From Adineta ricciae (Eukaryota; Rotifera; Eurotatoria; Adinetida; Adinetidae), in NCBI GenBank assembly GCA_905250025.1, contig CAJNOJ010000099.1, forward strand, positions 186,001 through 250,000: a stretch of DNA of 64,000 nucleotides. The letters are read 5' to 3'. The translations under genes and the position numbers were made by a program. Shown piece after piece: positions 9,869 through 34,648 of this stretch (position 1 is the stretch's first letter; every line of letters starts with the position of its first letter). The notes beneath the pieces are model-generated. The model did not search any database. It was not told the origin of the DNA and saw only the letters and a program-made list of their open reading frames with translations.

Positions 9869-10951
9869 ATGTCGTTATTGTCGCAAGAAATAATTGATCG
9901 AAGTATCGGTATGGCATTTGGCACAGCTGTGGGAGATGCCATGGGTATCCCATTCGAAAATCTTAATCCAGAACAAATTGTTGAGATACAAATGTTATCG
10001 AAAAAAGACGAAACTTTATTTGTTAATACGGCTGGTCGAAATCCCTACATTCCAAAAGAATGGGCGACAGGTCGTTGGGGTGATGCGACGCAACTGTCTC
10101 TCGCGATTATGCACGCTATTGCTAAATACCTCAATAATACCGGTAAACCAAACTTATCGCTAATCGATAGTATTGTTGATGAACATGTCAAAGAATGGTG
10201 GGAATGTAGAGATGGTTGGGGGAATGGAACACGAAGTGCAATTGAAAGAATAGCGGGTGGAATGTACTCATATAAAACGAGTGGTGGATCATCAACTGGT
10301 AATGGCGTTATTATGAAATTGACACCGATTGCTTTCTTTTTTCATGTTTGTAAACATGACGTGGATAATGAATTGGTTGAAGCGATCTGTCAAATGACGC
10401 ATATGAACTCGGTTACAATTACAACCGCATTTATTTACATTTACCTATGTATGTTTATTTTTGAGTATGGTTTACCATCGTCGCGCGAAGAGAAGGAAGT
10501 TTTCCTTCAACACATTCTGCAATTGAGTCTCAAATATGAGAATACATACAATCTGACAATTCCAAAAGAATTGTTGAGTATTCGAATTCATCGTTATTTA
10601 GAAAATATTGATGATATTAATGATCGAATACTACTTGATGTTAGTCATGGTGGAACATATTTCTGTGTTGACACCTTGTCAATGGTGATTGGTTTGTTAG
10701 TAACGAAACCTGTGTCATTCGCAACAATGGAAAAAGCTATAGGAATGGGCGGAGATACGAATATTGTCGCTGCTATGATTGGAGCACTTCTAGGTGCGGC
10801 ACAAGGACAAAAAACAATCGATCCTCGACATTGTGAAGTAGTTTATCGTACTGATTATGTTCGAAGAATTGGCGAAGAATTCGGACAAACTTTGACTCAA
10901 TATCTTAATCTTCCAGCAGATAGTAACAGTCAAGTCGAGAATTTTAATTGA
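9869..10951 (+). CDS. ADP-ribosylglycohydrolase-fold protein, probable altered active site
   Basis: A single exon of 360 residues with the all-helical ADP-ribosylglycohydrolase (DraG/ARH) pattern: AVGDAMG at residues 20-26, a middle motif GRWGDATQLSLA at 68-79, and GMGGDTNIVAAMIGALLGAA near the C-terminus. Active members carry two metal ions bound by a TDDT motif and a GGDTDT motif. Here the first reads GDAT (G71, D72, A73, T74) and the second reads D296-T-N298-I299. Several expected ligands are therefore replaced, and hydrolysis of ADP-ribosyl bonds may be weak or lost. The gene lies 850 bp upstream of a PARG/PBZ gene on the same strand, which hints at a shared ADP-ribose theme. Fold assignment is firm; activity is doubtful. 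Confidence 0.85.
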   Translation: MSLLSQEIIDRSIGMAFGTAVGDAMGIPFENLNPEQIVEIQMLSKKDETLFVNTAGRNPYIPKEWATGRWGDATQLSLAIMHAIAKYLNNTGKPNLSLIDSIVDEHVKEWWECRDGWGNGTRSAIERIAGGMYSYKTSGGSSTGNGVIMKLTPIAFFFHVCKHDVDNELVEAICQMTHMNSVTITTAFIYIYLCMFIFEYGLPSSREEKEVFLQHILQLSLKYENTYNLTIPKELLSIRIHRYLENIDDINDRILLDVSHGGTYFCVDTLSMVIGLLVTKPVSFATMEKAIGMGGDTNIVAAMIGALLGAAQGQKTIDPRHCEVVYRTDYVRRIGEEFGQTLTQYLNLPADSNSQVENFN

Positions 10952-11803: not shown

Positions 11804-14800
11804 ATGGCTACTTTCAATGAGTATATTTCGAGCAGCGATAATGTAAGTATCAGATGGTAAGATTTAATTACTACAAAGTGCAAGTGTTATTTTCATCAAC
11901 AATCGGCATGTCGTTTAGGAAAATAATTTTTCATCGGTTCCAAAACAAGACCAACAATCTTTCAAATCATCTTCACCTTCGACTCTTTCCAAAACGGCTG
12001 ACAACAATACCTCTACATTGAGAACAAAAGCTACTGAAGCGCTGTACTCTAATCAGCCTGTTGATGATTATAAAGAACATCCAGAATTGGCACAGGGTTA
12101 GTATATCCACAAGTATGAGCAGCCGAATACTATACGATGCGCAGGCACAGGCACATATTTTCCATTCTACTTTACATCGAAACCCATAAGCATTCTTTCT
12201 AAATCATCGATATTTCTTAAGTAATTGACAAAGTTAGTTGAAATTTCTCAATCTATGTAAGTATTTGAGTAATACTGAGAACGTGAGACACTTCTAGAGA
12301 TTTCAACACGATCACGATAACACTCGGGTATGGTAAGGGTAGCATGGAACCTGATGATTATTTTTGTGTCTAAAAATTTATCGAAGTAGATGAATTGGCA
12401 CTGTTATAGACCCATCAAGTACTCAAGGTGATCGCCATTTTTCACCAACAACATGCGTCCAAAATTGGAAGTGTCGTGAATGTGGGTATATTAACGACGA
12501 GAAGAATATATCGTGCGACACTTGCGACACAGAAAAACCAATCTATCCGTGTCTCGAAATCCCTTACAGTAATTCCGACGAATATGGAGAACTATCATCA
12601 TTTGGTGACCGCGATTATTCTTCTCAAGTATCAGAAACAGTATATGATCGGTCAGGTTTAAGCAGTCCTTCATCAATTCGACGGAAAACTTCCCGTTCGG
12701 ATCGATCATCGTCTTCGTCTGATCAGGAAGCTCAAGATTCAATGCCAACGAGTACTACGAGAGGTAACTATCAGCTAGATAAGCATTGATCAAGACCGTT
12801 TATCGCTAATTATCGATTTATTAGAAAAACTACGATCGTCTTCTGATAAACATTCATACAATCTGAACACTAAAGCTAATGAGAAACCTCATTCGGAGAA
12901 GACGTACGCAGTATCATCAAATTCGAGTGCGCTAACGAGCGATTTTATTTATCCAAAATCACATTCTACATACGAATTTGCACCATCCGAAAGTAGGACT
13001 AACAATTTCAAAAATTTCATTCCGTTCCATTTAAATAGTAGACTTTGAACCTGTACGTGCACCAATACCTACCACGCCAGGTCTCCCTGTGCATACGCAA
13101 AGTACTTTCGTTCGGAATTATGTATTAGACGATAAAGCATCGCCTAAGAATGCACCATTATTCGTCTCTAGATCCAACCTACAAGTCAAAAGTGACACCA
13201 ATTTATATCCTGATAAAAGTCAATTATCATCATCAACAACAAGAGCACATAGAGATAATAATGCTCTAACAGCACATACAATGATATGTAAAACATCAAA
13301 TTCAAGTAACCTTAACGTGGTATACATACCGGATTTGCCCGTAAATATCCATGAACCCAAAGTATTGGAAGATATGCTTCGTAGTTGCTTGGAAGACCGA
13401 CATAAACAAAAAGTAGTAGACGTAGAGTGTAATACTCTACTTGGTGTCGGTATAGTTCATTTACCTAGTAAAGAAGAAAAAGATCATTTATTGAATACAG
13501 TCATATATGCGATGATTGAGCCATCATCTAAAGCGACAGTGTCATTTGTCGATAAGCTTGATTTGGTATCTTATGTTGTTATTTCAAACAATGAGAACAA
13601 TGGCTATCCAACAGGGGAAGAAATTCAACGGCAATGGATGCAGGTTTATAAACCGAAATCGCCGCCAAAATGTGAACAGCTCTCTGCTCTATTCCCCAAT
13701 ATATTTCGAGTAACTACACATTCATTGGATGAATTGATCAGTGCGATGTCTACGAGAGTACTTATTATTAATAATAATTCAGCAAATGTTTATTTTCGAG
13801 CTGACTGTTGTTTCTATGAAGATTTACCAAGAGCAATGAATCAAGAAAAATTAGTCCAAGCAGTACGTCAACAAATAACTGACGAATACATGGCCGAAGA
13901 GTATATGCACATTCAACGCCATAAAACTGGTGGCATTGCAGTCATTATTTCGTCAGGTAGAGCACGTATCTGGTCGCTACGCGAGTTTATCGAATCAAAT
14001 GGCAAAAAATTTAACAAGAAGAACAATTTAGCATGCCGTTTAAAGATACCAAACGTACCGAGACGTTTATCGATAGAATCCATTCAAAATCATAAAGTTT
14101 TCGCCAATTGTGTCGTTCATGCTACACGTAAAAATGATGATATTGTTCTCGAACTCTCGGATCGTAACGTATTCGATAAGTGTATTGACCAAGCGGCCTT
14201 TTGTGTCCATAATCATCCGTTAAGAATTGAAGCCCACCAAGCAACATCTAAACCAGAAGACAGTGATATCGACGATGACACTTGGTATGAGACTGATATG
14301 CGTGATTATACAAAAGCTAATATTATGCAGTTTGTACCTAACCACGAACATCCCATATTTCGATACAAATGGAATTCCGAAGCATTCTTGAAACAGTTCC
14401 GTCGTTGGACGTCGAAACAACACGACCGATCGGTTGGACCAGATCCAGTTAAATATGAAGACTTGTGTAATCTTAAACGTCATTTACTGCGAATGACCGT
14501 TATGTTGAATACAATTGGTGTTGTCACGCGAGGCTTCTATCGTGTTGAAGATAAGGAAATTAAATTAATATCAAATCGACTCAAAACTGTAGTTTATAAT
14601 CACAAATCTAAACTACACCATAAGAAGACAATTCTATGGTCTCAAGCAACAACATTCCCATGTCCACAGACAATCGTCAAAGTTGTTCAGCGCGATTGTT
14701 TGCTTGTATACAAAGAACTAGTTAGTAAAGGTCTTCGACCCGTACTTTTAAACATGGCTAACGCATACAATCCCGGGGGCGGCTATAGACAAGGTGACGG

Positions 14801-17800
14801 AGCGCAGGAAGAATCACTATTCCGTCGGTCAAATTATTATCAAAGTCTTGATGCTGAATTGGATGGTGATAAGCCGTCGGCGAGATATCGTTACGACTCA
14901 AATGGCGCTTTAGAACAATTAGCTCCAAGTGATGCATTGTATCCCATGGATAAATATGGAGCAATTTATACATCAGGTTTGACAGTTTTCCGTCAGCCGG
15001 AAGAAGTCGGCTACGGCTACATGCCCATTCCAATGTATGATGTTTGTTCTATTGCAATGGCTGCTTATCGTGATCCAAAAATAGAACACAATCTCTTAGC
15101 AGCAAAATATTCTCTTGGTACACGGAAAAAAATTGAGAACATTTTTGCAATTGCTCATCATAACAAACATGATAGTTTGGTTTTGTCTGCTTTTGGATGT
15201 GGAGCATTCCACAATCCTCCTGGTCATATAGCTACAATCTTCAAATCGGTTATCGAGCAGTATGCAGGATATTTCAAATGTATTTATTTTGCTATTATTG
15301 ATGATCATAATGCGGGATCATCTTTGAATCCACAAGGAAACTATTCACCTTTTCAAACGATTTTCAATGACGCAAAGTTCGAACCCAAGAAAAATTTTAT
15401 GACGGGTATGATGATTGGACCATGGAGAATTATAAATGAAATAACAACGACTACTAAATCAGAAGTAACACTAGATGATGTGGAAATATGTCAATCAAAG
15501 CTTTGCCATTTCGGTGGCGGATGTAAAGAGCTCACAAACACGCAACATTGTCAGGAATATTCTCATCCAGCTCTGTGTCCATATACAAATAATGAAACGT
15601 CGTGCAAAGAAAATCAAGATGCTCAACATAGAATTTTGTATCAACATCGGCGACTATGTTCAGAGGGTGGTGAATGTAAATTAGTCGATGATGATCAAAC
15701 GCATCGCAATAAGTATGAACATCCAGTTTTTTGTCGTGATGGTGGCGCATGTGAAAATCTGGATCGTGATCATCTAAAATCATATCGGCATGTTCCTTTC
15801 TGCAAAGATCGTCTTGAATGTTTGGATTATATTCTTAAATCAAAAGAGCACTGTCATGATTTCAGACATTGTATGCCCATGTGTCGTTACGGTAAATTCT
15901 GCATACGGTTTCATGATGAAAAACATTTGCAAGAAGAAAAGCATCCTTTTAATCAACCATGCCCATTCACACCATACTATTGTCCTAAATACAATGAATT
16001 CTCACAAGCCGCTGACAAGAAATCATTAAAAATCGACGTCCAAAAACATTGTTTACAATTATCTCATGTCTGCGAATGGGGTCGACTATGCAAAGATACA
16101 TCTGAGCAACACTCGAAAAGTACCATACATGTCCCACGTCATATGTGTCCATACGATAATCGGTGTACGAAAACTAATCAAGATGACCACTTGAATACGT
16201 TTTCGCATACGGGTATACTCGATATTCGCCCTATGTGCGCTCACCGACGTGATATTTGTCGAAATAAAGGGAAATCTGATCATATGAAACAATTTCGACA
16301 TTATGGAAACTATGATTTTAGCGGTGTTATAAATTATTTTGGTCAAAACAAATCGATAGATTTTGTTGAAAATCAAAAACATATGATGGAAGCTATCAAC
16401 AGCTATTTTGAGCACAACAAAATAACTCGTTCTGTACCGGAAGAAATCGAGAGGTTTGTCAAAGCTTTACAACCAGTTCACCGTTGCTCAAAAGTTATTT
16501 TCGAATCGATACTTGTTCATGGTCATGTAATGTCTAGTAAGCATATGGAGCACTTAAAACAACCTAAGTTTGCTGCTCAAGCTGCCCAAGAACATAGAGA
16601 TGTACGAACTATTCTTGATCGTCATGGCGCTGCCCGAAGCTGTGCTAAAGAATATATTCAAGCGATCATTGCATTGGAGTACAGTAAATACAGTAAAAAA
16701 CATCCGATAAGTTTACCCATGGAAGTACCTCCTATTTCATCATCAATGTTACGTTCCTCGATATTACCCACGTCCGATTCTCAAGAATCGAATGAAACAA
16801 TACAGAAAACGGAAAGATGTTTAAGAGCTATAATAGGAAAAAAAGAAATTGATACAATTCGTCGATGTGCAGTCGATATCGCCACTGCTTCATGGAATCT
16901 TCATAACGCTCCAGCCGGTATTCAATATGAAAAGGACAAACAGCTGGGTACAAATAAGCATGTTTTCGGTATTCTCGGTCCACATTGTGGGCACTATTAT
17001 GGAGATATTGTTTTGGTGTTTAAAGCGGAAGTCATGCTTCATCCAGATGCCAACTTTACCCATCAAGCAGCAACATCATATTTAAGTGGAAAAACGTATT
17101 CTCAACGTCCGTGGGTGAGAGATCCTGGCTCGGATTCGAGAAAAAGAACAATGTGCTTTCACCGATCAAAAATGCATTGTTCTGTGTCGAACTATGAACA
17201 TGTTGCGGCAGCAGAGCTCATTGCTATAACAAGTGAACACCAGAAGAAATCGAGTATTAATTGCGACGATATTCTTCATCGATGGTTGAGCGTCGATTCG
17301 CATGAAGTATTTGAAGCACATTTGCCACAACTAATCCCATTGGATTATATTGAAAAAGTGTATATTCCAGAAAGTTTATTCTATTCTTTATCACAAAAAG
17401 CTCAAGAATGTGCAAAAAGAACGTTCTGTCATGGTTTGCATTTAACGAACCATCGGGTTGATGTATCACCAAACGACATGCGTGCGTTAGATAAGAATCG
17501 TATGAAATATCAAAATTTCATCATCAAGGAGCTTGTCACAAACATTGAAAAGCGAATGAAACATCCTACATATTTATATGGTACTCTCATTACGCTTGTA
17601 CCAACTAAATTTACAGATTACATAGTTTTACCAATAACTATAAACAAAGCTTATTATCAGTACCGCCGAACTCATAAAAATCATTCGAATGCCGATGATA
17701 TCTACATCTATTGGCAAGCCATGCATGGTGACATGATTCTTGCATTATCAGATGAACACATTGAGTCAAAAAGATCAGAAAAAAATACTCAATATCTTGT

Positions 17801-19341
17801 GTGTTATATCGCACCACGACCATCTCTGAAAACGGCGACATATTATGAAGCATATTCATACCTGAGCGACGATGATCCATACAGACACAAAGTCATTTTA
17901 GCCAGTAGTGAATGTGTTGCCAAATCAAATACATTCTACCGTGGTTGTAATAGCGAAGATTTTCTTACTTTTTGCCTCAAACTCGATAAGAAAACAGGAC
18001 AAGTTACACTTTCACACGCTGGAGCAAATGGTATTTATTGCCATAACACAATTACGTATCAATTTTCTAAACAACATCTCGATTTAAACAAATTAAGATA
18101 TGTCCATGTCAGTGCCAGATCTCAGAAAGTGCCTATTCGAAATCTAGTTATAACTTTTAAGCCGATTTCCGATCTTCATCCATCGTTCGACAAGAACTTT
18201 AGACCAGAAGGTGACGTTTCATCTAATGATGCCCACTCACATAGCCATGATAAACCACCACCACATAGGTTCGACGGACCGTCTAGAGACGAATCCCCAT
18301 CATTTCTAAACAAAGCGGGTAATGCGATTAAAGGTGCCGTTGATTATCTCCGTCGTAACGATAAAGAGCGAAAACCATGCCCGGAAGCAGTCAACTGTTT
18401 ACTACAAGGATCATCTGCACATACAGAAGAATTCTTTCATCCTTGCAGATATGCTGAGTTATGTAATAACAAAGATAAAGAACCTCATTTAACGCATGAA
18501 TCTCGGCGAGTTACACAATGTCAGTTGAATATTTCATGTTCAAAACTTGACAATCCCGCCCATCGAGCTGCATACCGACATGATGGTTATCCGGATTTTC
18601 TCATACCTTGCAGAGATAGCTCAAAATGCCAAGATTCGACATTCCAACATCGAAAGAAATATTCACATGGTGAAAAAATTGATCTGAAACTAGGATATAA
18701 CGGTAAGTCCCCATTGTTCGTATATAGATATTAAACTGTTTTCACTTGTACTTTCCACGGATGCCATAGATGAGAAAAATTCGTCACAACCATCGTCGGG
18801 AGGAGCAGATCGCGCTACCGAAGATCAAATGTCTTCCTTTGGAGAGGGAGGACGGGAGAATGTTCAAAAGAACCCTTGCCTTAACGAATCAAACTGTCGT
18901 GCACAAAACGATGGTCACCATTATTCCGGATACTCACATGAAAATCGTCAACCCATTCCATGTCGATATGCAAATAATTGCAGAGATAAAGACGATCCGC
19001 AACACTCGGCCAAGTATTCTCATCCAAATGATCATAGACCTTACGATGCGTCTGCATCTAACCAAGGGAAAATACACTGCCGTCACGGAAATGACTGTTG
19101 GGATAAAAATGATCCGAATCATTGTTCTAAATACTTCCATCCATCTGCTCGTGGCAGTGAAAAGATTCAATGTCGCTATGGAAATGATTGTCGGGATAAG
19201 AATGATCCTCGGCACTGTTCGAAGTACTCCCATCCATTTGCTCGTAGCAATGAACAGATTCAATGTCGCTATGGAAATGATTGTCGGGATAAGAATGATC
19301 CTCGGCATTGTGCGAAGTACTCCCATCCTCATCGTCGCTGA
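11804..19341 (+). CDS. giant PARG-PBZ protein with RanBP2 zinc finger (copy 1, complete)
   Basis: Six exons join in phase: 11804-11842, 11919-12096, 12410-12763, 12825-12992, 13039-18702 and 18770-19341, giving 2324 residues. Domains in order: a RanBP2-type zinc finger at about 92-115 (WKCRECGYIN...CDTC); a possible RRM-like fold near 335-420; a bacterial-type poly(ADP-ribose) glycohydrolase core at about 730-990 with GGGYRQGDGAQEE (826-838), whose second Glu is the catalytic residue in that family; ten PBZ-like CCHH fingers at about 1063-1343; an uncharacterised region with GPHCGHYYGDIVLVFK and a beta-rich segment; four more fingers at about 2025-2135; and five near-perfect PBZ fingers (CRYGNDCRDKNDPRH...HP) in the last exon. 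It should bind and cut poly(ADP-ribose), probably in the nucleus. No transmembrane segment or signal peptide is seen. Confidence 0.85.
12097..12409 (+). other. longest intron of the PARG/PBZ gene
   Basis: This 313-bp intron separates the second exon from the exon with the RanBP2 finger. Donor GTTAGT and acceptor TTATAG keep the phase (G plus AC gives Asp). It is several times longer than the other introns in the window, which are mostly 46-82 bp. No coding potential was seen. Confidence 0.6.
18829..19338 (+). repeat. array of five PBZ-coding units (about 93 bp each)
   Basis: The last exon of the PARG/PBZ gene is built from repeated units that each encode one PBZ finger with the pattern C-x5-C-x6-H-x5-H-P. 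The last two units (about 19150-19335) are nearly identical at the DNA level, which points to recent unit duplication. The second copy of the gene has four units. Confidence 0.8.
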
Positions 19342-19694
19342 TGAGGCAACTTCACATGAATACTGAAGCAAACATACACTTTAACTGAATTCCCTATTCT
19401 AGAAAAAATAGAATTTCTTTTTTTGAATGCTTTTTACTCACGATTTAATAAAAATCCACTGAAGCGGGCGTTATTTGAACAGATAGTGTGATTGGGTGTT
19501 ATAGACTATCCTCACAATCATTGTATCGGGTAACACTTTTAGAAGACGCACTGCTGTCCTTCGTAGTGCTATGTTTGCCACGTGTCTTATTTTCTTATCG
19601 AATGCTTTATCTCTGTGTCCTTCTGTATATAAACTAGTAAAAAAATGATGTATAAAGCGCTACTCTTTTTGACAGAATACTATCCGCATGCGAT
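19342..19694 (+). other. short intergenic region
   Basis: 350 bp between the PARG/PBZ stop and the hydrolase start. It contains AATAAAAATCC about 100 bp after the stop, a likely poly(A) signal for the upstream gene, and a TATATAAAC motif near 19626-19634, a plausible TATA box for the hydrolase. Both are conserved in the second copy. Confidence 0.45.
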
Positions 19695-20618: not shown

Positions 20619-21280
20619 CAAAAACGAACCTGGTCTTATTATTCGATTTTGTTTTACTGTTACATATTTCAATAGATATATGTTTCGGCTAAATATTCGT
20701 CACACATTGTAAGGAGCATTGAAAGGTGCGGGACATTGACATCGGTAGTGACACATAAATTTATTTCATCAGAAGTCTGCCTGCTATACTTTCATTGATG
20801 TTTATCTGGGTGAAATCGATTATACGCATCTTTCCTTAAATCCCATTTTTTTTAATTTGTGTTGTTTACTAGTAAACTCCTTATAAGCAGCATAACATTA
20901 CTCTTGAGGAAGAACACAAGTAGAAAAATGCCAATTGACTTTCTCAAGCTAATTTATCTCAATGTATCAATAGCTTCTTTCAGACGAAATATTATCAAGC
21001 GAATGAAAACTCGCTCTTCCTACTTTATCGTCGTCTATGTCATGAATTCAAACCGTTTCTTATTTACTACACCTACTCTATTGAAAGCTTACATTAATCA
21101 TTAATAGAAGGAAAATAATTGCGTTTTGAAAGGATATACACAGGTAAATAATGATTTTTTCATCATGTAACTCCTAATGAAAAAACGTAACTTACGATTA
21201 GATTATCATGATTTATACATAATAACTATTCTCCTCAGAATATCCTCTACATAACAAACCTCTTCTACTATACCGTAGAG
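20619..21280 (+). other. intergenic between hydrolase and SK channel
   Basis: 660 bp. A short open frame near 20859-21104 is not preserved in the second copy, where its reading frame shifts, so it is not considered a gene. It probably holds the channel promoter or 5' leader. Confidence 0.45.
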
Positions 21281-22939: not shown

Positions 22940-23092
22940 AAGAGATGTTTGTGAAATATTGTATTGTTTTTTAATAGAATATTTTGTTCTCTATCAGAGT
23001 TGAATAATCAACAATAATAATAATTTATGGCAACAAAACACGTCGAAACCGCGAGAATAGCATTGTATGAAAAGATTACGTTTTAGAAATGA

Positions 23093-25499
23093 TCATGACT
23101 GATGGTCATGTGCTGTAGCTGTAAAATATTGCTGTTTAATTCTATCAAATTTAGACAAGATCTGCTCGCAAGCACTTGGTTTAAAGCCAGTTTTCGACGC
23201 TGCTAGTATTACCGCTTCAGAGACACTCTGCTCATCTTGCAAATTGTTTTGAGCTAAGTTGAGTGTGGATAAATCTAGATCAATCGTATTTGCTACGTCT
23301 GTTTCATCGTCCTTATTGTTAAGCAGAGAGTTGTTAAAACTGGCATAGAAACCTCGACATATCCAAGTCAGCGAAGATAACGTCCCAACGACAGGTTTTA
23401 ATAAACCATTGACAAGTCCTATCAATGTTCCAGCAGCACCACCAATGAGTCCATGACGTCCATAACCGATACGAGGTGTCTCCAAGAGTTCTTTAACACC
23501 GTCTGTCCAACCGTAGTAGACAGCAAGTATAGCAGCGTTCACACCTGAATTGAAATCAACCACATATGGTCGAGAGCGAAGTTCTTGTTCACTGAAATGA
23601 CGAAAGATATATTACATAGATAGAAATTGTTCTTTACTTATAAAAATCATAATAAACTGGTGCCGCGTCCAATACATCGGTCAATTCTCCATAAAGCGAA
23701 ACACAACCAATGCATAGATGGCCAATACCTTTCCCTAAGCCTTTTGCAATACCTTCGCAGACACTACGCGTGCCACTTTGCCATGTATCACAATGAACTG
23801 CTTGTTTGATACCGCTGCTAGTATCGATAACAATGGTCACAATGGCTTTTTGTGTATGTTTTATGATACCATGAAACGGTATGTGGATGCGATTATCGTA
23901 TATCGAGAGCCATTGTCGTGTTGGATGACTTTCTAATTGTGATTCATCAATTCGTTTTCCAATGAGAAGTACTTGGGCAACACGACGCGATACTTGCAAT
24001 CGGTGGTCTTTCAGTTGATAGCACGCTGCATCTGTTGATTCCAGATCGCTACGCATAGTGGAAAGTGGAAGATGAGCATGGAATGCATGCACTGCTTCAT
24101 CACAACCATTTTCTTTTGACATCGAATTTCGGATACGTTCAGCAGCAGCTTTCGTTTCTGGTCGACGTACAAATTCAATTGCTTTTACCAGATCTTCTGT
24201 CGTCAAAATTTTTCCAGGCACTGGATGAGGACCAGCGCCATTCTTTTCCACAACATTGCCCCAAAAAAATTGATCTCCGAAAAATGGTACTATAATCGTT
24301 GGCTTACCAGCCAGAAGACCAGCAGCAGTTGTACCTGCTCCTCCATGATGACATACAGCAGATACTATTTATAGACTGATATTTAAAATACAGGCGAAAG
24401 GCGATGTGATACTGACCATGCTGAAAAAGCCAATCGTGTGGAACACTACCAATTTTAAAAACTGTTTCAGGTAGTTGATCATCATCTTTTGCTAAGCCAG
24501 AGAGTAAAGCTCGGTAGCCGGTTTGTTCAAGTGCTTCTAGAACAATTTTTAACAGACGGTCAGAATCATGTCCCGTGATTGAACCAAAGCCAATATAGAT
24601 AGGCGGTGATAGCTTCTCCGATTTGTTCGCATTCTTCAGACCGAGAAACCTTAACAAATCATCTGGATAATTGGTGTCAGCAGTAGCATCTTGTTTAAGA
24701 ATAAAGAATCCACTAACATTTATATGATCTGCCCAATCTTTAGGCTTAGGTACAAGTGATGGCGACCAACAATATGTATATGGCACATGTTCATCGATCA
24801 TCATAAATGTTGCTTGTCGAGTATGAAGCGGCGGTAAACTTAAGACCTCTCGACGAAAGTTATTCACAATATCGCGCATACTAGACCAGGTCTGTCAAAG
24901 AAGAAAATATTACTTCTTCACAGTTGTTTCGATGTAGAACAAACATCTTGAATACACTTACAAACATTTCGATTGCTGTATACGATAACATATTCACTTT
25001 TTCAATTGATGCTTTTGAATAATCAACGTTGATTAGAGGATGTGGAAAAGCAGTCGTTGGTGACCAAGGCATTGTAAACATAATATGTAATGGAATTTGT
25101 AATTTTTGTGCACAATGTACATGACCGAAGGATGGCGGATTGGCAATGATTGCCTCTGCTGTGAATGATTCTCCTGTTTCATCATCATCAAGCGTACATG
25201 CACTCCAAGTCGACGCCAAAATTTCAGTTAAAACATTACGATTTTTCGTTAAATCTCCTGCGGCAATACTGCTCACTGACGGTATGACGCCAGAGTTTTT
25301 CACCATAAATGCCATAAGATCAGCTGGATCTCCTGCCAATGGGAAAAATTCTAAACCATTTCCTCGTACAAATTTACGAAATGTATTATGTGTTGCCAAA
25401 CGAACACGATGGCCAGCAGCCACTAATGCTTGTCCAAGACTGTTAAAATACGCAAACAATTGATGTTCACAACCGATTAAGTTGATAAACTTACGCTAT
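23093..25499 (-). CDS. sterol glucosyltransferase-like GT1 enzyme, copy 1, lacking exon 1
   Basis: Minus-strand exons 25439-24962, 24891-24417, 24364-23638 and 23591-23093 match exons 2-5 of the complete copy at 38042-40549. Of exon 1 only five bases (25495-25499) remain before the N at 25500, so the start and the GTRGDVQPF motif are absent. The rest has the family features: AAGHRVRLATH, PPIYIGFGS, and the nucleotide-sugar site with HHGGAGTTAAGL and VPFFGDQFFWG. It is partial because of the junction, not because of internal damage: no frameshift was found in the remaining exons. Confidence 0.85.
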
Positions 25500-25500
25500 N
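25500..25500. other. single ambiguous base at the repeat junction
   Basis: An N lies exactly between the right end of copy 1 and the left end of copy 2. To its left the sequence is glucosyltransferase exon 1; to its right it is the inside of the PARG/PBZ coding exon. Reading frames that cross it are not real. Confidence 0.95.
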
Positions 25501-28500
25501 GTCAATCAAAGCTTTGCCATTTCGGTGGCGGATGTAAAGAGCTCACAAACACGCAACATTGTCAGGAATATTCTCATCCAGCTCTGTGTCCATATACAAA
25601 TAATGAAACGTCGTGCAAAGAGAAACAAGATGCTCAACATAGAATTTTGTATCAACATCGGCGATTATGTTCAGAGGGTGGTGAATGTGAATTAGTCGAT
25701 GATGATCAAACGCACCGCAATAAGTATGAACATCCAGATTTTTGTCGTGATGGGGGCGCATGTGAAAATGTGGATCGTGATCATATAAAATCATATCGAC
25801 ATGTTCCTTTCTGCAAACATAGTCGTGAATGTTTGGATTACATTCGTAAATCAAAAGAGCACTGTCATGATTTCAGACATTGTATACCCATGTGTCGTTA
25901 CGGTAAATTCTGCATACGGTTTCATGATGAAAATCATTTGCGAAAAGAAAAACATCCTTTTAATCAACCATGCCCATTCACACCATACTGTTGTCCTCAA
26001 TACAATGAATTCTCACAAACTGCTAACAAGAAATTATTAAAAATCGACGTCCAAAAACATTGTTTACAATTATCTCATGTTTGCGAATGGGGTCGACAAT
26101 GCAAAGATAGATCTGATCAACACTGGAAAAGTGCCATACATGTTCCACGTCATATGTGTCCATACGATAATCGGTGTACAAAAACTGACCAAGATGACCA
26201 CTTGAATACGTTTTCGCATACGGGTATACCTGATATTCGCCCCATGTGCGCTCATCGACGTGATATTTGTCGAGATAAAGGGAAACCTGATCATATAAAA
26301 CAGTTTCGACATTATGGAAACTGTGATTTTAGCGGTGTTATAAATTATTTTGGTCAAAACAAATCGATAGATTTTGTTGAAAATCAAAAACATATGATGG
26401 AAGCTATCAACAGCTATTTTGAGCATAACAAAATAACTTGTTCTGTACCGAAAGAAATCGAGAGATTTGTCAAAGCTTTACAACCAGTCCATCGTTGCTC
26501 AAAAGTTATTTTCGAATCGATACTTGTTCATGGTCATGTAATGTCTAGTAAGTATATGGAGCACTTAAAACAACCTAAGTTTGCTGCTCAAGCTGTCCAA
26601 GAACATAGAGATGTACGAACTATTCTCGATCGTCATGACGCTGCCCGAAGCTATGCTAAAGAATATATTCGAGCGATCGTTGCATTGGAGTACAGTAAAA
26701 AACCTCCGATAAGTTTACCCATGGAAGTACCTCTACATATTTCATCATCAATGTTACGTTCCTCGATATTACCCACGTCTGATTCTCAAGAATCGAATGA
26801 AACAATACAGAAAACGGAAAGATTTTTAAGAGCTATGATGGAAAGAAAAGAAATTGATACAATTCGTCGATGTGCAGTCGATATCGCCACTGCTTCATTG
26901 AATCTTCATAAAGCTCCAGCCGGTATTCAATATGAAAAAGACAAACAGCTGGGTACAAATAAGCATGTTTTCGGTATTCTCGGTCCGCATTGTGGGCGCT
27001 ATTATGGAGATATTGTTTTGGTGTTTAAAGCGGAAGTCATGCTTCATCCAGATGCCAATTTTACCCATCAAGCAGCAACATCATATTTAAGTGGAAGAAC
27101 GTATTCTCAACGTCCGTGGGTGAGAGATCCCGGCTCGGATTCGAGAAAAACAGCGCGCTTTCACCAATCAAAACTGCATTGTTCTGTGCCGAACTATGAA
27201 CATGTTGCGGCAGCAGAGCTCATTGCTATAACAAGTAAACACCAGAAGAAATCGAGTATTGACTACAAGGATATTCTTGATCGATGGTTGAGCGTCGATT
27301 CGCATGAAGTATTTGAAGCACATTTGCCACAACTAATCCCATTGGATTACATTGAAAAAGTGTATATTCCAAAAAGTTTATTCTATTCTTTATCACGAAA
27401 AGCTCAAGAATGTGCAAAAAGAACGTTCTGTCATGGTTTGCATTTAACGAACCATCAGGTTGATGTATCACCAAACGATATGTATGCGTTAGATAATAAT
27501 CGTAAGGAATATCAAAAGTTCATCATCGATAAGCTTGTCACAAAAATTAATAAGCGAATGAATCATCCTACATATTCATATGGTACTTTCTTTACGCTTG
27601 CACCAACTGAATTTACAGATTACATAGTTTTACCAATAACTATAAACAAATCTTATTATGAGTACCGCCGAACCCATAAAAATCATTCGAATGTCGATGA
27701 TGTCTACATCTATTGGCAAGCCATGCATGGCGACATGATTCTTGCATTATCAGATGAACACATTGAGTCAAAAAGATCAGAAAAAAATACTCAATATCTT
27801 GTGTGTTATATCGCACCACGACCACCTCTGAAAACGGCAGCATATGATGAAGCATATTCATACCTGAACAACGGTGATCCATACAGGCACAGCGTCATTT
27901 TAAACAATAATGAATGTAATGCTAAATCAAATACATTCTACCGTGGTTGTAGTAGCGGAGATTTTCTTACTTTTTGTCTTAAACTCGATAAGAAAACAGG
28001 ACAAGTTACACTTTCGCACGCTGGAGCAAATGGTATTTATTGCCATAATAAAATTACGTATCAATTTTCTAAACAACGTCTCGATTTAAACCAATTGCGG
28101 TATGTCCATGTCAGTGCCGGATCTCAGAAAGTGCCTATTCGAAATCTAATTATAACTTTTGAGCCGGTTTCTGATCTTCATCCATCGTTCGACAAGAATT
28201 TTAGACCAGAAAGCGACGTTTCATCTAATGATGAACACTCACATAACCATGATAAACCATCACCACATAGATCCAACGGACCGTCTAGACACGAATCCCC
28301 ATCATTTCTAAACAAAGCGGGCAATGCGATTAAAGGTGCTGTTGATTATCTCCTTCGTAACGATAAAGAACGAAAACCATGCCCGGAAGCAGTCAACTGT
28401 TTACTACAAGGATCATCTACACATACAGAAGAATTCTTTCATCCTTGCAGATATGCTGAGTTATGTAATAACAAAGATAAAGAACCTCATTTAACGCATG

Positions 28501-28650
28501 AATCGCGGCGAGTTACACAATGTCAGTTGAATATTTCATGTTCAAAACTTGACAATCCGGCCCATCGAGCTGCATACCGACATGATGGTTATCCGGATTT
28601 TCTCATACCTTGTAGGGATAGCTCAAAATGCCAAGATTCGACATTCCAAC

Positions 28651-28931
28651 TGTCATGGGCAATTACCAAGCTAGTATCATAAGGAATTGTCCTACATATC
28701 TTCTTGCGTTCTGCACATATATATGTTTATTTCGTTCTACATGACGTCATGTCATATGTTCATCATATGTGCTCTTGCGTTCCTTACGTCACTTTTGTTT
28801 CCCTGTATCGTTGGTATTTTCTAAGTCTAGTAACTCTATATAAACTTGATATGTTTTGGTAGAAGGGCGTTCAGTTGTGTAACTATTTCTGTTTTACAAT
28901 AAACATCATTTAAGTTAAAACGGATCTAACA
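28651..28931 (+). repeat. 5' LTR
   Basis: 281 bp. It contains a TATA box TATATAAA at 28837-28844 and an AATAAA poly(A) signal at 28898-28903, giving a very short U3-R-U5 arrangement. It matches the 3' LTR base for base as read. Confidence 0.95.
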
Positions 28932-28933
28932 AT

Positions 28934-28954
28934 TGGTGCACTGGCCGGGAATCG
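28934..28954 (+). promoter_or_regulatory. primer binding site, tRNA-Gly-like
   Basis: Two bases after the LTR, a 21-base stretch beginning TGGTGCACTGGCC matches the complement of the 3' end of eukaryotic tRNA-Gly(GCC), including CCA and the acceptor and T arms, with one difference from the mammalian form. Confidence 0.7.
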
Positions 28955-28963
28955 GTAAGGTAT

Positions 28964-29653
28964 ATGTCAGGTATTACAACTAGATTACAGAAAATACGAA
29001 AGCAACAAGAATTTGAATCTGAATTTGCACGGATAAATTGTATCAAGGTAGAAAAAACAAACAATTCACTTCATTATTTGACAGAACATATTGTTTATCG
29101 ACCGAAATTATTTACAATGGACGAAAAACTAACTATTTCGTTATTAACTAGTTCCAGTGATAAGTTACCAAAGTTTAGTGGAAAGAATTCGGAAAATGTG
29201 GCCAAATGGTTAAGAAAAGTTACGAATGAATTAAATGTATTCAAACTGACAGATCCTCAAAAGTTATTGATGATTCCATCGGTGTTAACAGATGATGCAC
29301 GTCAATGGTATGTCAACAATTTAGCTCTTTTGGTGGATTGGGCAACATTTTCCCGCGAAATCTTAACGGCATTTACATCACCCATGCATCGCAATGTGGC
29401 AATTAAGCAGATAGGTACGCGAGTGCAAGGCGTGGAGGAAACCGTGTTGCATTATTATCACGAAATGATCGAGCTATGTGATATGATTGACAACGACATG
29501 AACGATGAATTGAAAGTCGGATATTTATTAGCTGGAGTTAATTACCGTATAAATCAGGCAATATACAAAAGACCATCCGATGTTTCAATTGCCATAAGGT
29601 TGGTCACATTGCACGTCATTGTTTCTCAAAAAACTACTAGCGGGGGCGAATGA
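28964..29653 (+). CDS. gag: gag-like frame, broken before its zinc knuckle
   Basis: The frame from the ATG at 28964 encodes a typical gypsy capsid region (DKLPKFSGKNSENVAKWL, then DDARQWYVNN). It enters nonsense near 29578. A CCHC zinc knuckle (CFNCHKVGHIARHC) is encoded at 29581-29622 in a different frame and ends at the TAG at 29638. So gag as read carries a frame break just before the knuckle, and the linker usually present between capsid and knuckle is nearly absent, as if a short deletion had occurred. A sequencing error is possible. Confidence 0.75.
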   Translation: MSGITTRLQKIRKQQEFESEFARINCIKVEKTNNSLHYLTEHIVYRPKLFTMDEKLTISLLTSSSDKLPKFSGKNSENVAKWLRKVTNELNVFKLTDPQKLLMIPSVLTDDARQWYVNNLALLVDWATFSREILTAFTSPMHRNVAIKQIGTRVQGVEETVLHYYHEMIELCDMIDNDMNDELKVGYLLAGVNYRINQAIYKRPSDVSIAIRLVTLHVIVSQKTTSGGE

Positions 29654-32600
29654 TGGTTACGCTCTCGTTCATACTCATCATCCATCTTTAATATTCATAC
29701 CAGCCTGGATCAATAGTTTGAAAATCAAAGCAATGCTAGATACGGGAGCCACATCTTCGCTAATCACCAAATCTACAATTAACAAACTTCATTTGCAACA
29801 ACAAATCCAGGTAGAAGGAGGCGAAATCGTATTAGGCGATTCACAAACACGAATGAAACAATATGGTCGAATTTATTTGGAATTAGAAATTGGCAGAAAA
29901 AGATTTGGAATTACAGCAATTGTCGTCGATCAATTAACAAATGAATTAATTTTGGGTATGGATTTTGTACGAAAATTCAAAGTAGAAATAAATATGAGCT
30001 CTGAATGTCTCATGCTGCACAGACAGAACCAACGCATCAGTGTGCAATTTGGCAAGTTCAATGACGTTCGATTAGCACAGCGATATACTATACTTCCCAG
30101 ATGTAAACAAGTGGTCAATGCGGTGGTAGATGGGGCGGTGACTGCGGAGAGAATGATGTTCAAGGTCGTGGGATGGAAGCAACAGCAAGCTAAGCGTGTT
30201 CGTCTTTGTGATGGTTTAGTTGATGTTTACAATAGTTGTGTACAAGTAACACTTTATAATCCTACAACGCGAAGTGTAACTCTTCCCAAAGCAATGTGTA
30301 TTGGTGAAATAGAGTCCTTGGAAGTTGATGAATATTGTTCGGTATTAAGCTCCACGAACACCATCGAAGAGTTTACGTTTCAGCAGCATCAAAAAGAGCA
30401 TCCAGTGCCACTAGACAAGATTGTTACTACGCTAACGCAACATTTATCCACTAATGATAAATATTATAAACAAATACACGAGCTTGTCGATGAACATAAA
30501 GTATTATTTGATGTAAGTCAACCACGTACGATTAACGCAACTATACATCACGTCATTGACACTGGCGATCATGCTCCAATTGCTGCTAAACCATATTTTA
30601 AAACTGTTGAACAGCGAAAGAATATTCAACAGGAGATTGATAAAATGTTGCGCGCCGGTATTGTTATACCATCGACATCGGACTGGTCATCTCCAGTGGT
30701 TTTATTAACGAAATCTGATGGCACCTTTCGATTCATAATAGATTACAGGAAATTAAATGCTATCACCAAGAAAGATGTCTATCCTCAGCCCACAGTCGAA
30801 GAGCTTATTCAACGTTTGGGTGGCCATTCATGGTTCACAAAGATTGACATGAAAGCAGGGTATCATCAAATTCCAATCAGAGATCAGGACAAAGAAAAAA
30901 CGGCGTTTGTTACGCAAGATGGTTTATATCAATTTGAAGTATTACCAATGGGTTTGATGAATGCGCCACCAACGTTTCAACGGTTGATGCATAATATCAT
31001 AGGTTATAATCGGTGGGACTATGTGGTCATCTATCTAGATGACATAATTATATTTTCTCATTCGTTTGAGGAACATGTGGGACATTTACGTGAAATCTTT
31101 CAAATCCTCAAGGATCACCAATTCACATTGAACCCGAAAAAATGTTCCATTGCTCAACAAACTATTGAGTTTCTGAGTCATATGATTACGAAAGATTCCA
31201 TTGTGCCGTTACCGGAACGGATTCAAGCCATCTTGGATATACCCCAACCAACAACATTAGCACAAGCGAATAAATTTATTGGTAAATTAGGATGGTATCG
31301 GAAGTTCATTCCTAACTTTTCTCAAATCGCAGCACCCATCCATCGAGTAACAAATAAAATCAAAAGTAAGCGCAAAGAGTTTGCTTGGGGAGATGAACAA
31401 ATTCAGGCTGCAAATGAACTCAAACGAATATTAACTGGTCAACCACTTATGCTGAAGTATCCTCATCCGACGGCACAATTCGTTCTGTCAACTGATGCAT
31501 CTGATTATGCAATTGGCGGCACATTGAAGCAAATCGTTAATGGTAAAACTCATTACAACTATTATTTATCACGGCTATTGTCGGACACAGAAAAACGATA
31601 TGCTACTATTGAGCGAGAAGCATTGGGTATATTTTGGTGCTTGAATAAGCTGCAGCAGTATCTGGGCGGAAGGGATGTGTTGGTTCTCACGGATCATAAA
31701 CCATTACAACACTTTCACGCGAAAAACAAGATCAATAGCAAACGAATAGAACAATGGCTCATCAAAAATCAAGAAATCCTATCACAAATAGTGGACGTAC
31801 AATATCGCAAGGGAAGCCAGAATGGAGATGCTGATGGAATGTCTAGACCTGGCCTACGAGATACTCTGGAAACCGTGAACGTCATGACTCGTGCTATGAC
31901 CAGAGCTCAGGCTCAAACAACAGTAACGAATCAAACCGATGTAGTAGTCTCACCAAAGGATGACAGTGGGTCTGTTATGACATTTAATTTTACTTTAATG
32001 CGAATCAGTACTGAACAACAGATGGATTCCTATTTTGGTAATATTTTGAGGCGAGTTACGGCAAACACAGGGCCCAAGGAACCGTATATCATGGAAAATA
32101 ATGTTTTGTATAAACTGGTGAAAACAGCAGCCAAGGGACGACAATTGAAATTAATTTGTATTCCAAAATCAATGCAGCAGGAAGTTATTCGATGTTATCA
32201 TGATCATCCGACTGCAGCCCATTTTGGTATTACCAGAACCTGGCTGAAAATTCGACAAGTGTGTTTTTGGCGTGGTATGAAACAGACAATAGTGAATTAT
32301 ATACGATCTTGTGACAAATGTTCGAGATATAATAGTAATCGCAATAAACCCACCGGACATTTAAATCCAATTGAACTGCCTGAAGGCCCGTTAGAATTAG
32401 TGTCAATGGATTTTTGGGGACCAACGCCACAATATTCATCAAAGGGCAATAAGTATGTTTTGGTTATTAGTGACTATTATACCCGGTATGTTGTGGCAAC
32501 TCCTCTCCCAAACAATACTGCGATAACTGCTGCTCAATGCTTTGTTGAAAATTTTGCCTTTAAGTTTGGTGTTCCTCGACGATTGATTACAGATCAGGGA

Positions 32601-33230
32601 GTTCATTTCAATAATGAATTGATGCGAAATGTAACCAAACTATTAGGAACAAACCATATTCAAACTACAGCGTATCATCCGCAGTCGAATGGTTTGACAG
32701 AAAGATTTAATGGCACGTTTCATACGCAATTAGCAAAATTTCAAAATGAGGATTTGTCGGATTGGGATGAGTTTCTTGGAGCCGTGACGTATGCGTATAA
32801 TACAGGTATTCAGAGTAGCACGAAATTCTGTCCATTTCAATTGATGTTCGGGCGTCGTCCTGTTTTACCACTCGATCATACAGCTGAGACATTTCATTTC
32901 GATCGACCCAATGATTATTGGCACAAGATGATGCGATGGAGCAATATTTACAAAACAGCAGCACGCCAACACATGAAATTCCAACAGCAACAATCAAAAG
33001 CACGCTTTGATAAACATCGTCCAAACCATCAACTTCAAGTGAATGATTTGGTGTGGTGGAAAGTTCCAGGGATTCGAGGCAAATTTCAAGAACGTTTTTC
33101 TGGTCCATTTCTAATTACGCACAAGCAGCATCCTTCGTATACTATTCAAGATCCGCAAACATCAGTTGTTAAAACTGTTCATATTAGTAGTTTGAAGTTA
33201 GTCTATTCTCGACCTGTTAGTTCCGTATAA
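29619..33230 (+). CDS. pol: pol polyprotein (protease, RT, RNase H, integrase)
   Basis: The open frame covers about 1200 codons and is probably reached by -1 frameshifting from gag, so the first codons do not mark a true start. Domains in order: retropepsin with MLDTGATSSL near residue 40; reverse transcriptase with FRFIIDYRKLN and catalytic YLDDIIIF near 472; RNase H with STDASDYAIGG near 624 and TDHKPLQHF; integrase with an HHCC zinc domain (H and H near 860, CDKC), then DDE residues in MDFWG, TDQG and ERFNG; and a C-terminal GPF-type module with LVWWKVPG. No stop codon or frameshift interrupts the frame, and the catalytic residues are present, so the enzyme part looks functional. Confidence 0.95.
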   Translation: MFLKKLLAGANDGYALVHTHHPSLIFIPAWINSLKIKAMLDTGATSSLITKSTINKLHLQQQIQVEGGEIVLGDSQTRMKQYGRIYLELEIGRKRFGITAIVVDQLTNELILGMDFVRKFKVEINMSSECLMLHRQNQRISVQFGKFNDVRLAQRYTILPRCKQVVNAVVDGAVTAERMMFKVVGWKQQQAKRVRLCDGLVDVYNSCVQVTLYNPTTRSVTLPKAMCIGEIESLEVDEYCSVLSSTNTIEEFTFQQHQKEHPVPLDKIVTTLTQHLSTNDKYYKQIHELVDEHKVLFDVSQPRTINATIHHVIDTGDHAPIAAKPYFKTVEQRKNIQQEIDKMLRAGIVIPSTSDWSSPVVLLTKSDGTFRFIIDYRKLNAITKKDVYPQPTVEELIQRLGGHSWFTKIDMKAGYHQIPIRDQDKEKTAFVTQDGLYQFEVLPMGLMNAPPTFQRLMHNIIGYNRWDYVVIYLDDIIIFSHSFEEHVGHLREIFQILKDHQFTLNPKKCSIAQQTIEFLSHMITKDSIVPLPERIQAILDIPQPTTLAQANKFIGKLGWYRKFIPNFSQIAAPIHRVTNKIKSKRKEFAWGDEQIQAANELKRILTGQPLMLKYPHPTAQFVLSTDASDYAIGGTLKQIVNGKTHYNYYLSRLLSDTEKRYATIEREALGIFWCLNKLQQYLGGRDVLVLTDHKPLQHFHAKNKINSKRIEQWLIKNQEILSQIVDVQYRKGSQNGDADGMSRPGLRDTLETVNVMTRAMTRAQAQTTVTNQTDVVVSPKDDSGSVMTFNFTLMRISTEQQMDSYFGNILRRVTANTGPKEPYIMENNVLYKLVKTAAKGRQLKLICIPKSMQQEVIRCYHDHPTAAHFGITRTWLKIRQVCFWRGMKQTIVNYIRSCDKCSRYNSNRNKPTGHLNPIELPEGPLELVSMDFWGPTPQYSSKGNKYVLVISDYYTRYVVATPLPNNTAITAAQCFVENFAFKFGVPRRLITDQGVHFNNELMRNVTKLLGTNHIQTTAYHPQSNGLTERFNGTFHTQLAKFQNEDLSDWDEFLGAVTYAYNTGIQSSTKFCPFQLMFGRRPVLPLDHTAETFHFDRPNDYWHKMMRWSNIYKTAARQHMKFQQQQSKARFDKHRPNHQLQVNDLVWWKVPGIRGKFQERFSGPFLITHKQHPSYTIQDPQTSVVKTVHISSLKLVYSRPVSSV
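29628..29634 (+). promoter_or_regulatory. -1 ribosomal frameshift slippery site
   Basis: The heptamer A AAA AAC lies in the zinc-knuckle frame (codons AAA 29629-29631 and AAC 29632-29634), four bases before the TAG at 29638. The pol frame is exactly -1 to it. This is the canonical X XXY YYZ layout for Gag-Pol fusion. Confidence 0.75.
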
Positions 33231-33403
33231 CAGCAAAGTAAGCATGTGACATATACAAACCTATACAAAGTAGTTTGATAAAAAAAAAAAAAAAAAAAAT
33301 ATATATATTCAACGCAAGTTAATCAATGACAATGGTAGTGGCAATACCGGAACATTGAACAATTGGATGTTTTGATGAACGTGGAAGTTCATCTTCTTCT
33401 TAT
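33231..33403 (+). other. short spacer between pol and polypurine tract
   Basis: Contains an A-run of about 20 bases at 33280-33299 followed by TA repeats. No env-like coding region. Confidence 0.6.
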
Positions 33404-33411
33404 GGGGGAGA
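33404..33411 (+). promoter_or_regulatory. polypurine tract
   Basis: GGGGGAGA sits directly before the 3' LTR, where plus-strand priming is expected. Confidence 0.75.
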
Positions 33412-33692
33412 TGTCATGGGCAATTACCAAGCTAGTATCATAAGGAATTGTCCTACATATCTTCTTGCGTTCTGCACATATATATGTTTATTTCGTTCTA
33501 CATGACGTCATGTCATATGTTCATCATATGTGCTCTTGCGTTCCTTACGTCACTTTTGTTTCCCTGTATCGTTGGTATTTTCTAAGTCTAGTAACTCTAT
33601 ATAAACTTGATATGTTTTGGTAGAAGGGCGTTCAGTTGTGTAACTATTTCTGTTTTACAATAAACATCATTTAAGTTAAAACGGATCTAACA
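33412..33692 (+). repeat. 3' LTR
   Basis: 281 bp, identical to the 5' LTR as read, ending CA and followed by the target duplication CCAAC. Confidence 0.95.
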
Positions 33693-34297
33693 CCAACATC
33701 GAAAGAAATATTCACATGGTGAAAAATTTGATCTACAACTAGGATATAACGGTAAGTCCCCATTGTTCGTATATAGATATTAAACTGTTTTCACTTGTAC
33801 TTTCCACGGATACCATAGACGAGAAAAAATCGTCACAACCATCGTCAGCAGGAGCAGATTGCGCTACCGAAGATCAAATGTCTTCCTTTGGAGATGGAGG
33901 ACGGGAGAATATTCAAAAGAGCCCTTGCCTTAACGAATCAAACTGTCGTGCACAAAACGATGGTCACCATTATTCCAGATACTCACATGAAAATCGTCAA
34001 CCCATTCCATGTCGACATGCAAATAATTGCAGAGATAAAAACGATCCGCGACACTCGGCCAAGTATTCTCAACCAAATGATCATAGGCCTTACGATGCGT
34101 CTGCATCTAATCAAGGGAAAATACACTGCCGTCACGGGAATGACTGTTGGGATAAAAATGATCCGAATCATTGTTCTAAATACTTCCATCCATCTGCGCG
34201 TAGCAATGAAACGATTCAATGTCGCCATGGAAATGATTGTCGGGATAAGAATGATCCGCGGCACTGCGCGAAATATTCTCATCCTCATCGTCGCTGA

Positions 34298-34648
34298 TCA
34301 GGCAACTTCACATGAATATACTGAAGTAAACATATACTTCAACTGAATTCTCTATTCTAGAAAAAATAGAATTTCTTTTTGAATGCTTTTTACTCACGAT
34401 TTAATAAAAATCCACTGAAGAGGGCGTTAATGAAACAGATAGTGTGATTGGGTGTTATAGACTATCATCACAATTATTGTATCGGGTGATACTTTTAGAA
34501 GATGCACTGCTGTCCGTCGTAGTGCTATATTTACCACGTGTCTTATTTTCTTATCGAATGCTTTATCTCTGTGTCCTTCTGTATATAAACTAGTAAAAAA
34601 ATGATGTATAAAGCTACTCTTTTTGATAGGATACAATCCGTATGCGAT
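34298..34648 (+). other. short intergenic region (copy 2)
   Basis: Equivalent to 19342-19694, with the same poly(A)-like and TATA-like motifs and small indels. Confidence 0.45.

What the first reader, a model, noticed from the sequence alone, without database searches (positions are those of the whole stretch)
11804..19341. A giant protein joining a RanBP2 finger, a bacterial-type PARG and about 19 PBZ fingers
Seen: GGG-x7-QEE PARG signature (14775-14813), a RanBP2-type finger in an upstream spliced exon, and three clusters of CCHH fingers matching the PBZ pattern (10, 4 and 5). Known: PBZ fingers bind poly(ADP-ribose), PARG cuts it, and RanBP2 fingers often bind single-stranded RNA. Inference: an enzyme that grips PAR chains at many points while it degrades or trims them, possibly in DNA repair after desiccation. 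I know of no described protein with this architecture.
Basis: partly seen in the sequence, partly recalled or inferred. Interest (0 to 1): 0.9.

Follow-up and report, generated by a model that had tools for sequence, protein, structure and literature searches.

The report
Giant ADP-ribose eraser with extra domains

Summary
Six exons (11804-19341) give 2324 aa; the Adineta ricciae database protein P0001 (2311 aa) is nearly the same. The PARG signature is at 14775-14813, in a bacterial-type PARG by Pfam, NCBIfam and fold. The 19 finger units can be traced, but only the last array passes PF10283 here, and none of 17 regular units has the basic pair of the PBZ consensus. The RanBP2 finger is below cut-off. 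PARG plus PBZ repeats in Adineta vaga is in print (PMC4245714, citing Slade 2011), so 'no described protein' is wrong for that core.

Best reading: a working ADP-ribose-polymer hydrolase on a nucleic-acid- and ADP-ribose-binding scaffold, probably with a second ADP-ribose-related domain. A desiccation role is untested.

The parts
11804..19341 (+). Six-exon gene, 2324 aa by my model; database model P0001 2311 aa lacks exon 1
12466..12525 (+). RanBP2-type zinc finger (residues 92-111), exon 3
   Evidence: PF00641 19.9 bits, E 4.4e-4, below cut-off 27; the A. vaga relative P0002 gives 23.3 bits, also below; PF00641 is precomputed for 6 of 120 listed relatives; 29 of 120 match the motif pattern
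13308..14231 (+). Four RRM-like beta-alpha-beta-beta-alpha-beta units (residues 337-644)
   Evidence: AF2 model pLDDT 89.8; Foldseek to Prp24 three-RRM 7.6e-7, also NONO and raver1; the unit count is my reading of the secondary structure; no Pfam RRM in this protein, but RRM_1 2.6e-6 in fungal P0199
14481..15380 (+). Bacterial-type PARG catalytic macrodomain (residues 728-1027); GGG..QEE at 14775-14813
15504..16301 (+). Finger array 1: about 10 CCHH units (9 regular), probably PBZ-derived
   Evidence: C/C/H/H of the 9 regular units kept in 55-62 of at most 62 relatives per column; PF10283 passes in the corresponding array of fungal P0195 (28.9 bits), not here
16329..17447 (+). ADP-ribosyltransferase-fold-like domain (residues 1344-1716); conserved P-x-H1394-R1395, Y1567-G-D, E1672-x-H1674-L-P
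17568..18164 (+). Lectin-like (galectin/legume lectin/CBM66) beta-sandwich (residues 1757-1955)
18378..18668 (+). Finger array 2: 4 CCHH units, 3 regular
   Evidence: C/C/H/H of the 3 regular units kept in 58-61 of at most 62
18877..19326 (+). Finger array 3 (exon 6): 5 PBZ-like units, variable in number among relatives
   Evidence: PF10283 1.7e-7, 3 stretches
25497..34340 (+). Second, 5'-truncated copy (from just after PARG) at 94-95% DNA identity, split by an LTR element (28651-33692); the surrounding block is bounded by single Ns at 25500 and 40958, so it may be the other haplotype scaffolded in
9908..10825 (+). Neighbouring ADP-ribosylglycohydrolase (ARH-type) gene; no such adjacency seen at other PARG loci of the assembly
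   Evidence: PF03747 8.3e-34

Best explanation
The gene encodes a member of a family of giant bacterial-type PARGs expanded in bdelloid rotifers and also present, in pieces of gene models, in the fungus Jimgerdemannia. Mechanism proposed: the RanBP2-like finger and the RRM-like repeats place the protein on RNA or single-stranded nucleic acid, the finger arrays bind ADP-ribose polymers or other partners, and the PARG macrodomain cleaves ADP-ribose with the usual Glu. Behind array 1 lies a conserved domain with the fold of an ADP-ribosyltransferase, followed by a lectin-like sandwich; I take it as an ADP-ribose/NAD-handling domain, active or decayed. Shown: gene, domains by profile or predicted fold, conservation, family. 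Inferred: hydrolase activity, nucleic-acid and PAR binding, any transferase activity, role in stress.
For: PARG by sequence libraries and fold; catalytic motif in 115 of 120 listed relatives; finger ligands of arrays 1 and 2 almost invariant; RRM-like fold with Pfam RRM in the fungal relative; ART-like fold match whose conserved polar sites lie at predicted strands in the order I recall for an ART triad; fungal relatives with PARG, PBZ fingers and the ART-like domain; a PARG tree joins bdelloid giants and fungus at 100/100, apart from the short PARGs of the same assembly.
Against: No activity or binding data. The fingers lack the basic pair of the PBZ consensus. ART reading: no Pfam, PDB-sequence or hhalign support; SopF is not among the 50 rows of Foldseek's own list, its rmsd is 4.2 (7.4 for the second entry), and lectins fill the VIA table, so other matches of that half are hidden. 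All five fungal models lack about residues 236-271 of the domain model, including the candidate Tyr, and their matches end before the lectin-like part. The two copies in the window differ with dN/dS 0.57 overall and 0.72 in the ART-like part, weak constraint between those two.
Confidence: 0.65

Rival explanations
1. Eraser only: an active PARG with zinc-finger and RRM scaffolding; the C-terminal half is a structural or protein-binding domain unrelated to ADP-ribosyltransferases, and the fold match is a coincidence.
For: No sequence evidence for an ART family; hhalign probabilities 0.2-0.3% against DarT, KptA and DUF3626 while DarT against KptA gives 18%; the fold match has 12% identity and rmsd 4.2 and is not in Foldseek's own 50 rows.
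Against: Among the 50 VIA rows shown (965 chains aligned), the only ones confined to that half are two entries of one ADP-ribosyltransferase; E1672 and H1674 are kept in 61 and 60 of 62.
Confidence: 0.35
2. Writer, reader and eraser in one chain: the ART-like domain transfers ADP-ribose to a nucleic acid or protein held by the RRM/finger parts, and PARG trims it.
For: paralogs without PARG keep the fingers and the ART-like region; a Rotaria protein, P0190, has part of a classical ART (PF01129) ahead of the finger array.
Against: No transferase assay or sequence signature; P0190 could be a fused gene model; candidate triad residues H1394 and R1395 are kept in only 53 and 54 of 62, Y1567 in 55.
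Confidence: 0.3
3. Fingers are ordinary structural or RNA-binding CCHH/C3H1-like modules and do not bind PAR; PARG targeting comes from other parts.
For: 0 of 17 regular fingers have the basic pair of the PBZ consensus or a Y-R pair after the second Cys; PBZ is structurally closest to RNA-binding C3H1 fingers (PMC4030884, passages read).
Against: The exon-6 array passes PF10283; the fungal array corresponding to array 1 passes too; 5-7-5 spacing, as in the consensus, is common.
Confidence: 0.3
4. A decaying or pseudogenised expansion without function.
For: Truncated second copy split by an LTR element; dN/dS 0.57 between the copies.
Against: Relatives from Adineta vaga, A. steineri and Rotaria at 55-62% identity with motifs kept.
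Confidence: 0.05

Closest known systems
Bacterial-type PARG of Adineta vaga with PBZ repeats (PMC4245714, citing Slade 2011)
   Same: Bacterial-type PARG catalytic domain plus several PBZ-type fingers in a bdelloid
   Different: The section and passages read name only PARG and PBZ for A. vaga; RanBP2 finger, RRM-like units, ART-like and lectin-like domains, PARG-less and RING-bearing paralogs and fungal relatives are not mentioned there (the figure itself was not seen)
T. curvata PARG (3sih) and D. radiodurans PARG (5zdb)
   Different: The bacterial chains solved are about 250-280 aa
Salmonella effector SopF, an ADP-ribosyltransferase (7dn8, 7dn9)
   Different: 12% identity, no sequence-profile match, residues not superposed, no activity known here
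PARP14-type and DNA-repair PARP proteins
   Same: RRM or PBZ combined with ADP-ribose domains; PBZ often with RRM or RING is noted in PMC4245714
   Different: No PARP catalytic domain (PF00644) found in the exons scanned; the enzyme is PARG; the PARP14 layout is recalled
Bdelloid DNA ligase E/K with PBZ fingers (PMC10665377, PMC6264785)
   Same: A PBZ-bearing gene shared between bdelloids and an early-diverging fungus (Mortierella)
   Different: Different enzyme; the ligase is stress-induced, this gene is untested

Membership tests
Bacterial-type PARG (PF10021/TIGR02452) | Profile match over cut-off | tested here: met
   78.5 bits against 23.5; 96.9 against 50
Bacterial-type PARG (PF10021/TIGR02452) | GGG-x6-8-QEE catalytic loop | tested here: met
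   residues 826-838; 115 of 120 listed relatives
Bacterial-type PARG (PF10021/TIGR02452) | PAR hydrolysis | not testable with these tools
   needs enzyme assay
PBZ finger (PF10283) | Profile match over cut-off | tested here: met
   exon-6 array only, 31.5 against 22.7 bits; arrays 1 and 2 give no match at E<=1
PBZ finger (PF10283) | [K/R]xxCx[F/Y]GxxCxbbxxxxHxxx[F/Y]xH (PMC4030884) | tested here: not met
   0 of 17 regular units, even without the leading K/R; 3 of 17 if the basic pair is dropped too
PBZ finger (PF10283) | PAR binding | not testable with these tools
   needs binding assay
RanBP2-type finger (PF00641) | Profile match over cut-off | tested here: not met
   19.9 against 27 bits; motif WxCxxC-x10-CxxC is present
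RRM | Beta-alpha-beta-beta-alpha-beta fold | tested here: met
   predicted model, Foldseek matches to Prp24, NONO and raver1 RRMs; part not folded alone
RRM | Pfam RRM in this protein | tested here: not met
   none at E<=1; present in fungal P0199
ADP-ribosyltransferase (ART) fold | ART fold | tested here: inconclusive
ADP-ribosyltransferase (ART) fold | Sequence match to a named ART family | tested here: not met
   hhalign 0.2-0.3%
ADP-ribosyltransferase (ART) fold | NAD-binding/catalytic triad (R-S-E or H-Y-E type, recalled) | tested here: inconclusive
   candidates H1394/R1395, Y1567, E1672 conserved, not superposed on an ART
Galectin/legume-lectin-like sandwich | Fold | tested here: inconclusive

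The most novel reading that the evidence does not exclude
A single polypeptide that writes, reads and erases ADP-ribose: an ART-fold domain diverged past sequence recognition adds ADP-ribose (perhaps to nucleic acid held by the RRM-like repeats), finger arrays hold the product and the PARG domain trims it, in a gene family shared by bdelloid rotifers and an Endogonales fungus, with PARG-less family members acting as writers only.
Probability: 0.27. Interest if true: 0.9.

Novelty: new variant of a known kind. Interest (0 to 1): 0.62.

Why it matters
Bdelloids tolerate desiccation and radiation, and ADP-ribosylation is among their induced processes (PMC10809525, passages read: 17 PARP genes over-expressed after radiation, 9 after rehydration), yet PARG is not named in that paper's main text. 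This family gives a concrete, testable eraser. If the second domain is a transferase, writer and eraser would sit in one chain. The fungal relatives would offer a second system and a possible case of gene transfer.

Tried and rejected
(1) ARH neighbour (9908-10825) as a functional partner: 58 PF03747 matches in the assembly. The other three contigs that hold both PF10021 and PF03747 matches (C137, C140, C9) put them more than 30 kb apart, so the adjacency looks like chance (lists are lower bounds). The classical ART at 56964-57476 is one of at least 150 in the assembly (150 of 553 candidates scored), so it too needs no explanation.

(2) Endo- versus exo-PARG from the position that I take as equivalent to D. 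radiodurans Thr267: the residue varies widely (Arg in 29 of 109); no conclusion.

(3) Sequence links of the ART-like domain to DarT, KptA or DUF3626: none. Searches used wrong frames for several rows and one search printed partly stale results; one search replaces them (KptA 4 rows of 6 loci fetched, DarT 6 rows of 9 tried and 12 fetched, DUF3626 3 rows of 5 loci). The control DarT-KptA gave only 18%, so the test is weak. Relatives of the domain in prokaryotic and viral contigs: none confirmed in pattern-limited scans. A phage DUF3626 protein stood at rank 11 (E 9.4e-3) in the viral fold search; DUF3626 is not found in the own assembly, but nothing rang in the controls either.

(4) The moss macro2 gene of Mucoromycota origin (PMC7181705, passages read) is a different family (PF14519).

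(5) Tandem duplication inside the window: single Ns at 25500 and 40958 bound the second block, so it may be a scaffolded haplotype. It is one of the 26 near-complete copies counted.

(6) Print searches for this protein: in the PMC open library (one search was for SopF). Of the papers that I opened, PMC4245714 and, in passing, PMC6445106 mention a rotifer PARG; several listed papers were not opened. Slade 2011 is not held; I know it only through PMC4245714.

Full report
WHAT IS THERE. The window lies in the bdelloid rotifer Adineta ricciae: the protein in the window is matched by P0001, 'unnamed protein product [Adineta ricciae]'. My six-exon model gives 2324 aa without a stop, all introns GT-AG. 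The database protein has 2311 aa; it differs at its start (no exon 1), at the exon 4/5 junction and at residues 975 and 979. No RNA-seq was available.

FINGERS. Sixteen units match a generic CCHH pattern against a mean of 0.5 in 200 shuffles, one more has a longer first loop, and two are irregular (by eye). Zinc ligands of the 12 regular units of arrays 1 and 2 are kept in 55-62 of at most 62 relatives per column; array 3 varies in number. PF10283 passes only for array 3. The corresponding array 1 of fungal P0195 passes (28.9 bits), so array 1 is probably PBZ-derived; PMC4245714 had found no PBZ in fungi. However, the PBZ consensus printed in PMC4030884 (passages read) asks for two basic residues after the second Cys: none of the 17 regular units has both, and none has a Y-R pair there, which PMC6264785 names as important in APLF (passages read; its place is recalled). 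PAR binding is therefore open.

N-TERMINAL PART. The RanBP2-type finger is below Pfam's cut-off but has the motif; the Adineta vaga relative scores 23.3 bits, also below; PF00641 is precomputed for 6 of 120 relatives and 29 of 120 match the pattern. Residues 337-644 are predicted (pLDDT 89.8 for the whole model) as four beta-alpha-beta-beta-alpha-beta units (my reading); Foldseek finds the three-RRM part of Prp24 at 7.6e-7, NONO and raver1. Pfam finds no RRM here, but finds RRM_1 (2.6e-6) in fungal P0199; a bdelloid N-terminal profile matches P0199 weakly (14.3 bits in a search of four sequences).

FAMILY. The full-length search gave 190 relatives, 120 shown; every row that names an organism is from bdelloids (Adineta, Rotaria, Didymodactylos), many rows name none, and 70 were not shown. 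The C-terminal region alone gave 74, including two Jimgerdemannia flammicorona proteins and an outlying unnamed one, P0194. A search with one fungal protein gave 7 hits, all Jimgerdemannia (itself included), two of them with PARG and one of these with RRM. So the fungus has RRM-PARG (P0199), PARG-finger (P0198) and PARG-tail-finger-ART-like (P0192) pieces; no single fungal model holds the whole chain, and the ART-like matches stop before the lectin-like part. In a 24-row PARG tree the bdelloid giants and the fungus form one group (100/100), away from four short PARGs of the same assembly and one bacterial PARG (a second bacterial locus was dropped for lack of a usable frame). Other eukaryotes were not sampled and long branches were flagged, so the direction of any transfer is not shown.

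COPIES. In this assembly (both haplotypes may be present) PF10021 has 32 matches, 24 of them in open frames of 592 aa or more. The C-terminal region has 38 matches, 26 covering at least 550 of 641 positions, two of these in the window. Contigs C129, C74, C154 and C411 have the region but no PF10021 match. In three of four stretches fetched from them (L040, L042, L043) the frame opens almost directly with fingers, in the fourth (L041) within the array; further upstream exons are not excluded. RING fingers are precomputed for 6 of 120 relatives (P0115 checked). The same assembly has 125 PARP, 58 ARH and at least 150 ART exon-level matches.

PRIOR ART. PMC4245714 (one section and passages read) states that PARG of Adineta vaga has several PBZ repeats, citing Slade 2011 (not held). 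So the PARG-PBZ core is known; the rest of the architecture was not found in the searches listed under Tried and rejected. A ligase with PBZ shared by bdelloids and Mortierella (PMC10665377, passages read) is a parallel case.

VERDICT. A real and unusual protein, with its core already described. The new points are the RRM-like part, the ART-like domain, the PARG-less and RING-bearing relatives and the fungal counterpart. The desiccation role remains a guess.

Noticed in passing
window 28651-33692 (+): LTR retrotransposon with identical 281-bp LTRs, 5-bp target-site duplication, gag and a protease-RT-RNaseH-integrase frame of 1210 aa, inserted in the second copy of the gene; identical LTRs suggest a recent insertion.
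   Followed up: partly
window 25500 and 40958: Single Ns bound a block about 95% identical to 15487-25499; possibly the other haplotype scaffolded in tandem.
   Followed up: partly
window 55920-57707 (-): Protein with an NAD:arginine ADP-ribosyltransferase domain (PF01129) and a leucine-rich repeat match.
   Followed up: partly
L040 5167-5778 and 6430-7233 (-); L043 similar by eye: Upstream of a PARG-less family member, on the same strand, stand an ARF-like GTPase frame (PF00025 8.1e-34, L040 checked) and a caspase-like frame (PF00656 8e-32, L040 checked). SopF is ARF-activated (PMC10333799), so the neighbour is curious, but may be chance.
   Followed up: no
P0190 (Rotaria magnacalcarata): Part of a classical ART domain (PF01129, 5.4e-10, profile 162-218 of 222) precedes the finger array and the start of the ART-like domain; fused gene model not excluded.
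   Followed up: no
P0194 (unnamed source, 552 aa): Outlying relative with part of the ART-like domain (FEAHLP), a B-box-like match below cut-off and fingers resembling array 2 by eye; organism unknown.
   Followed up: no
window 391-3786 (+): 1131-aa frame with a GTPase-like match (PF01926 1.4e-6) near its middle.
   Followed up: no
window 60001-62000: G+C falls to 0.234 against 0.30-0.40 in the other 2-kb windows.
   Followed up: no
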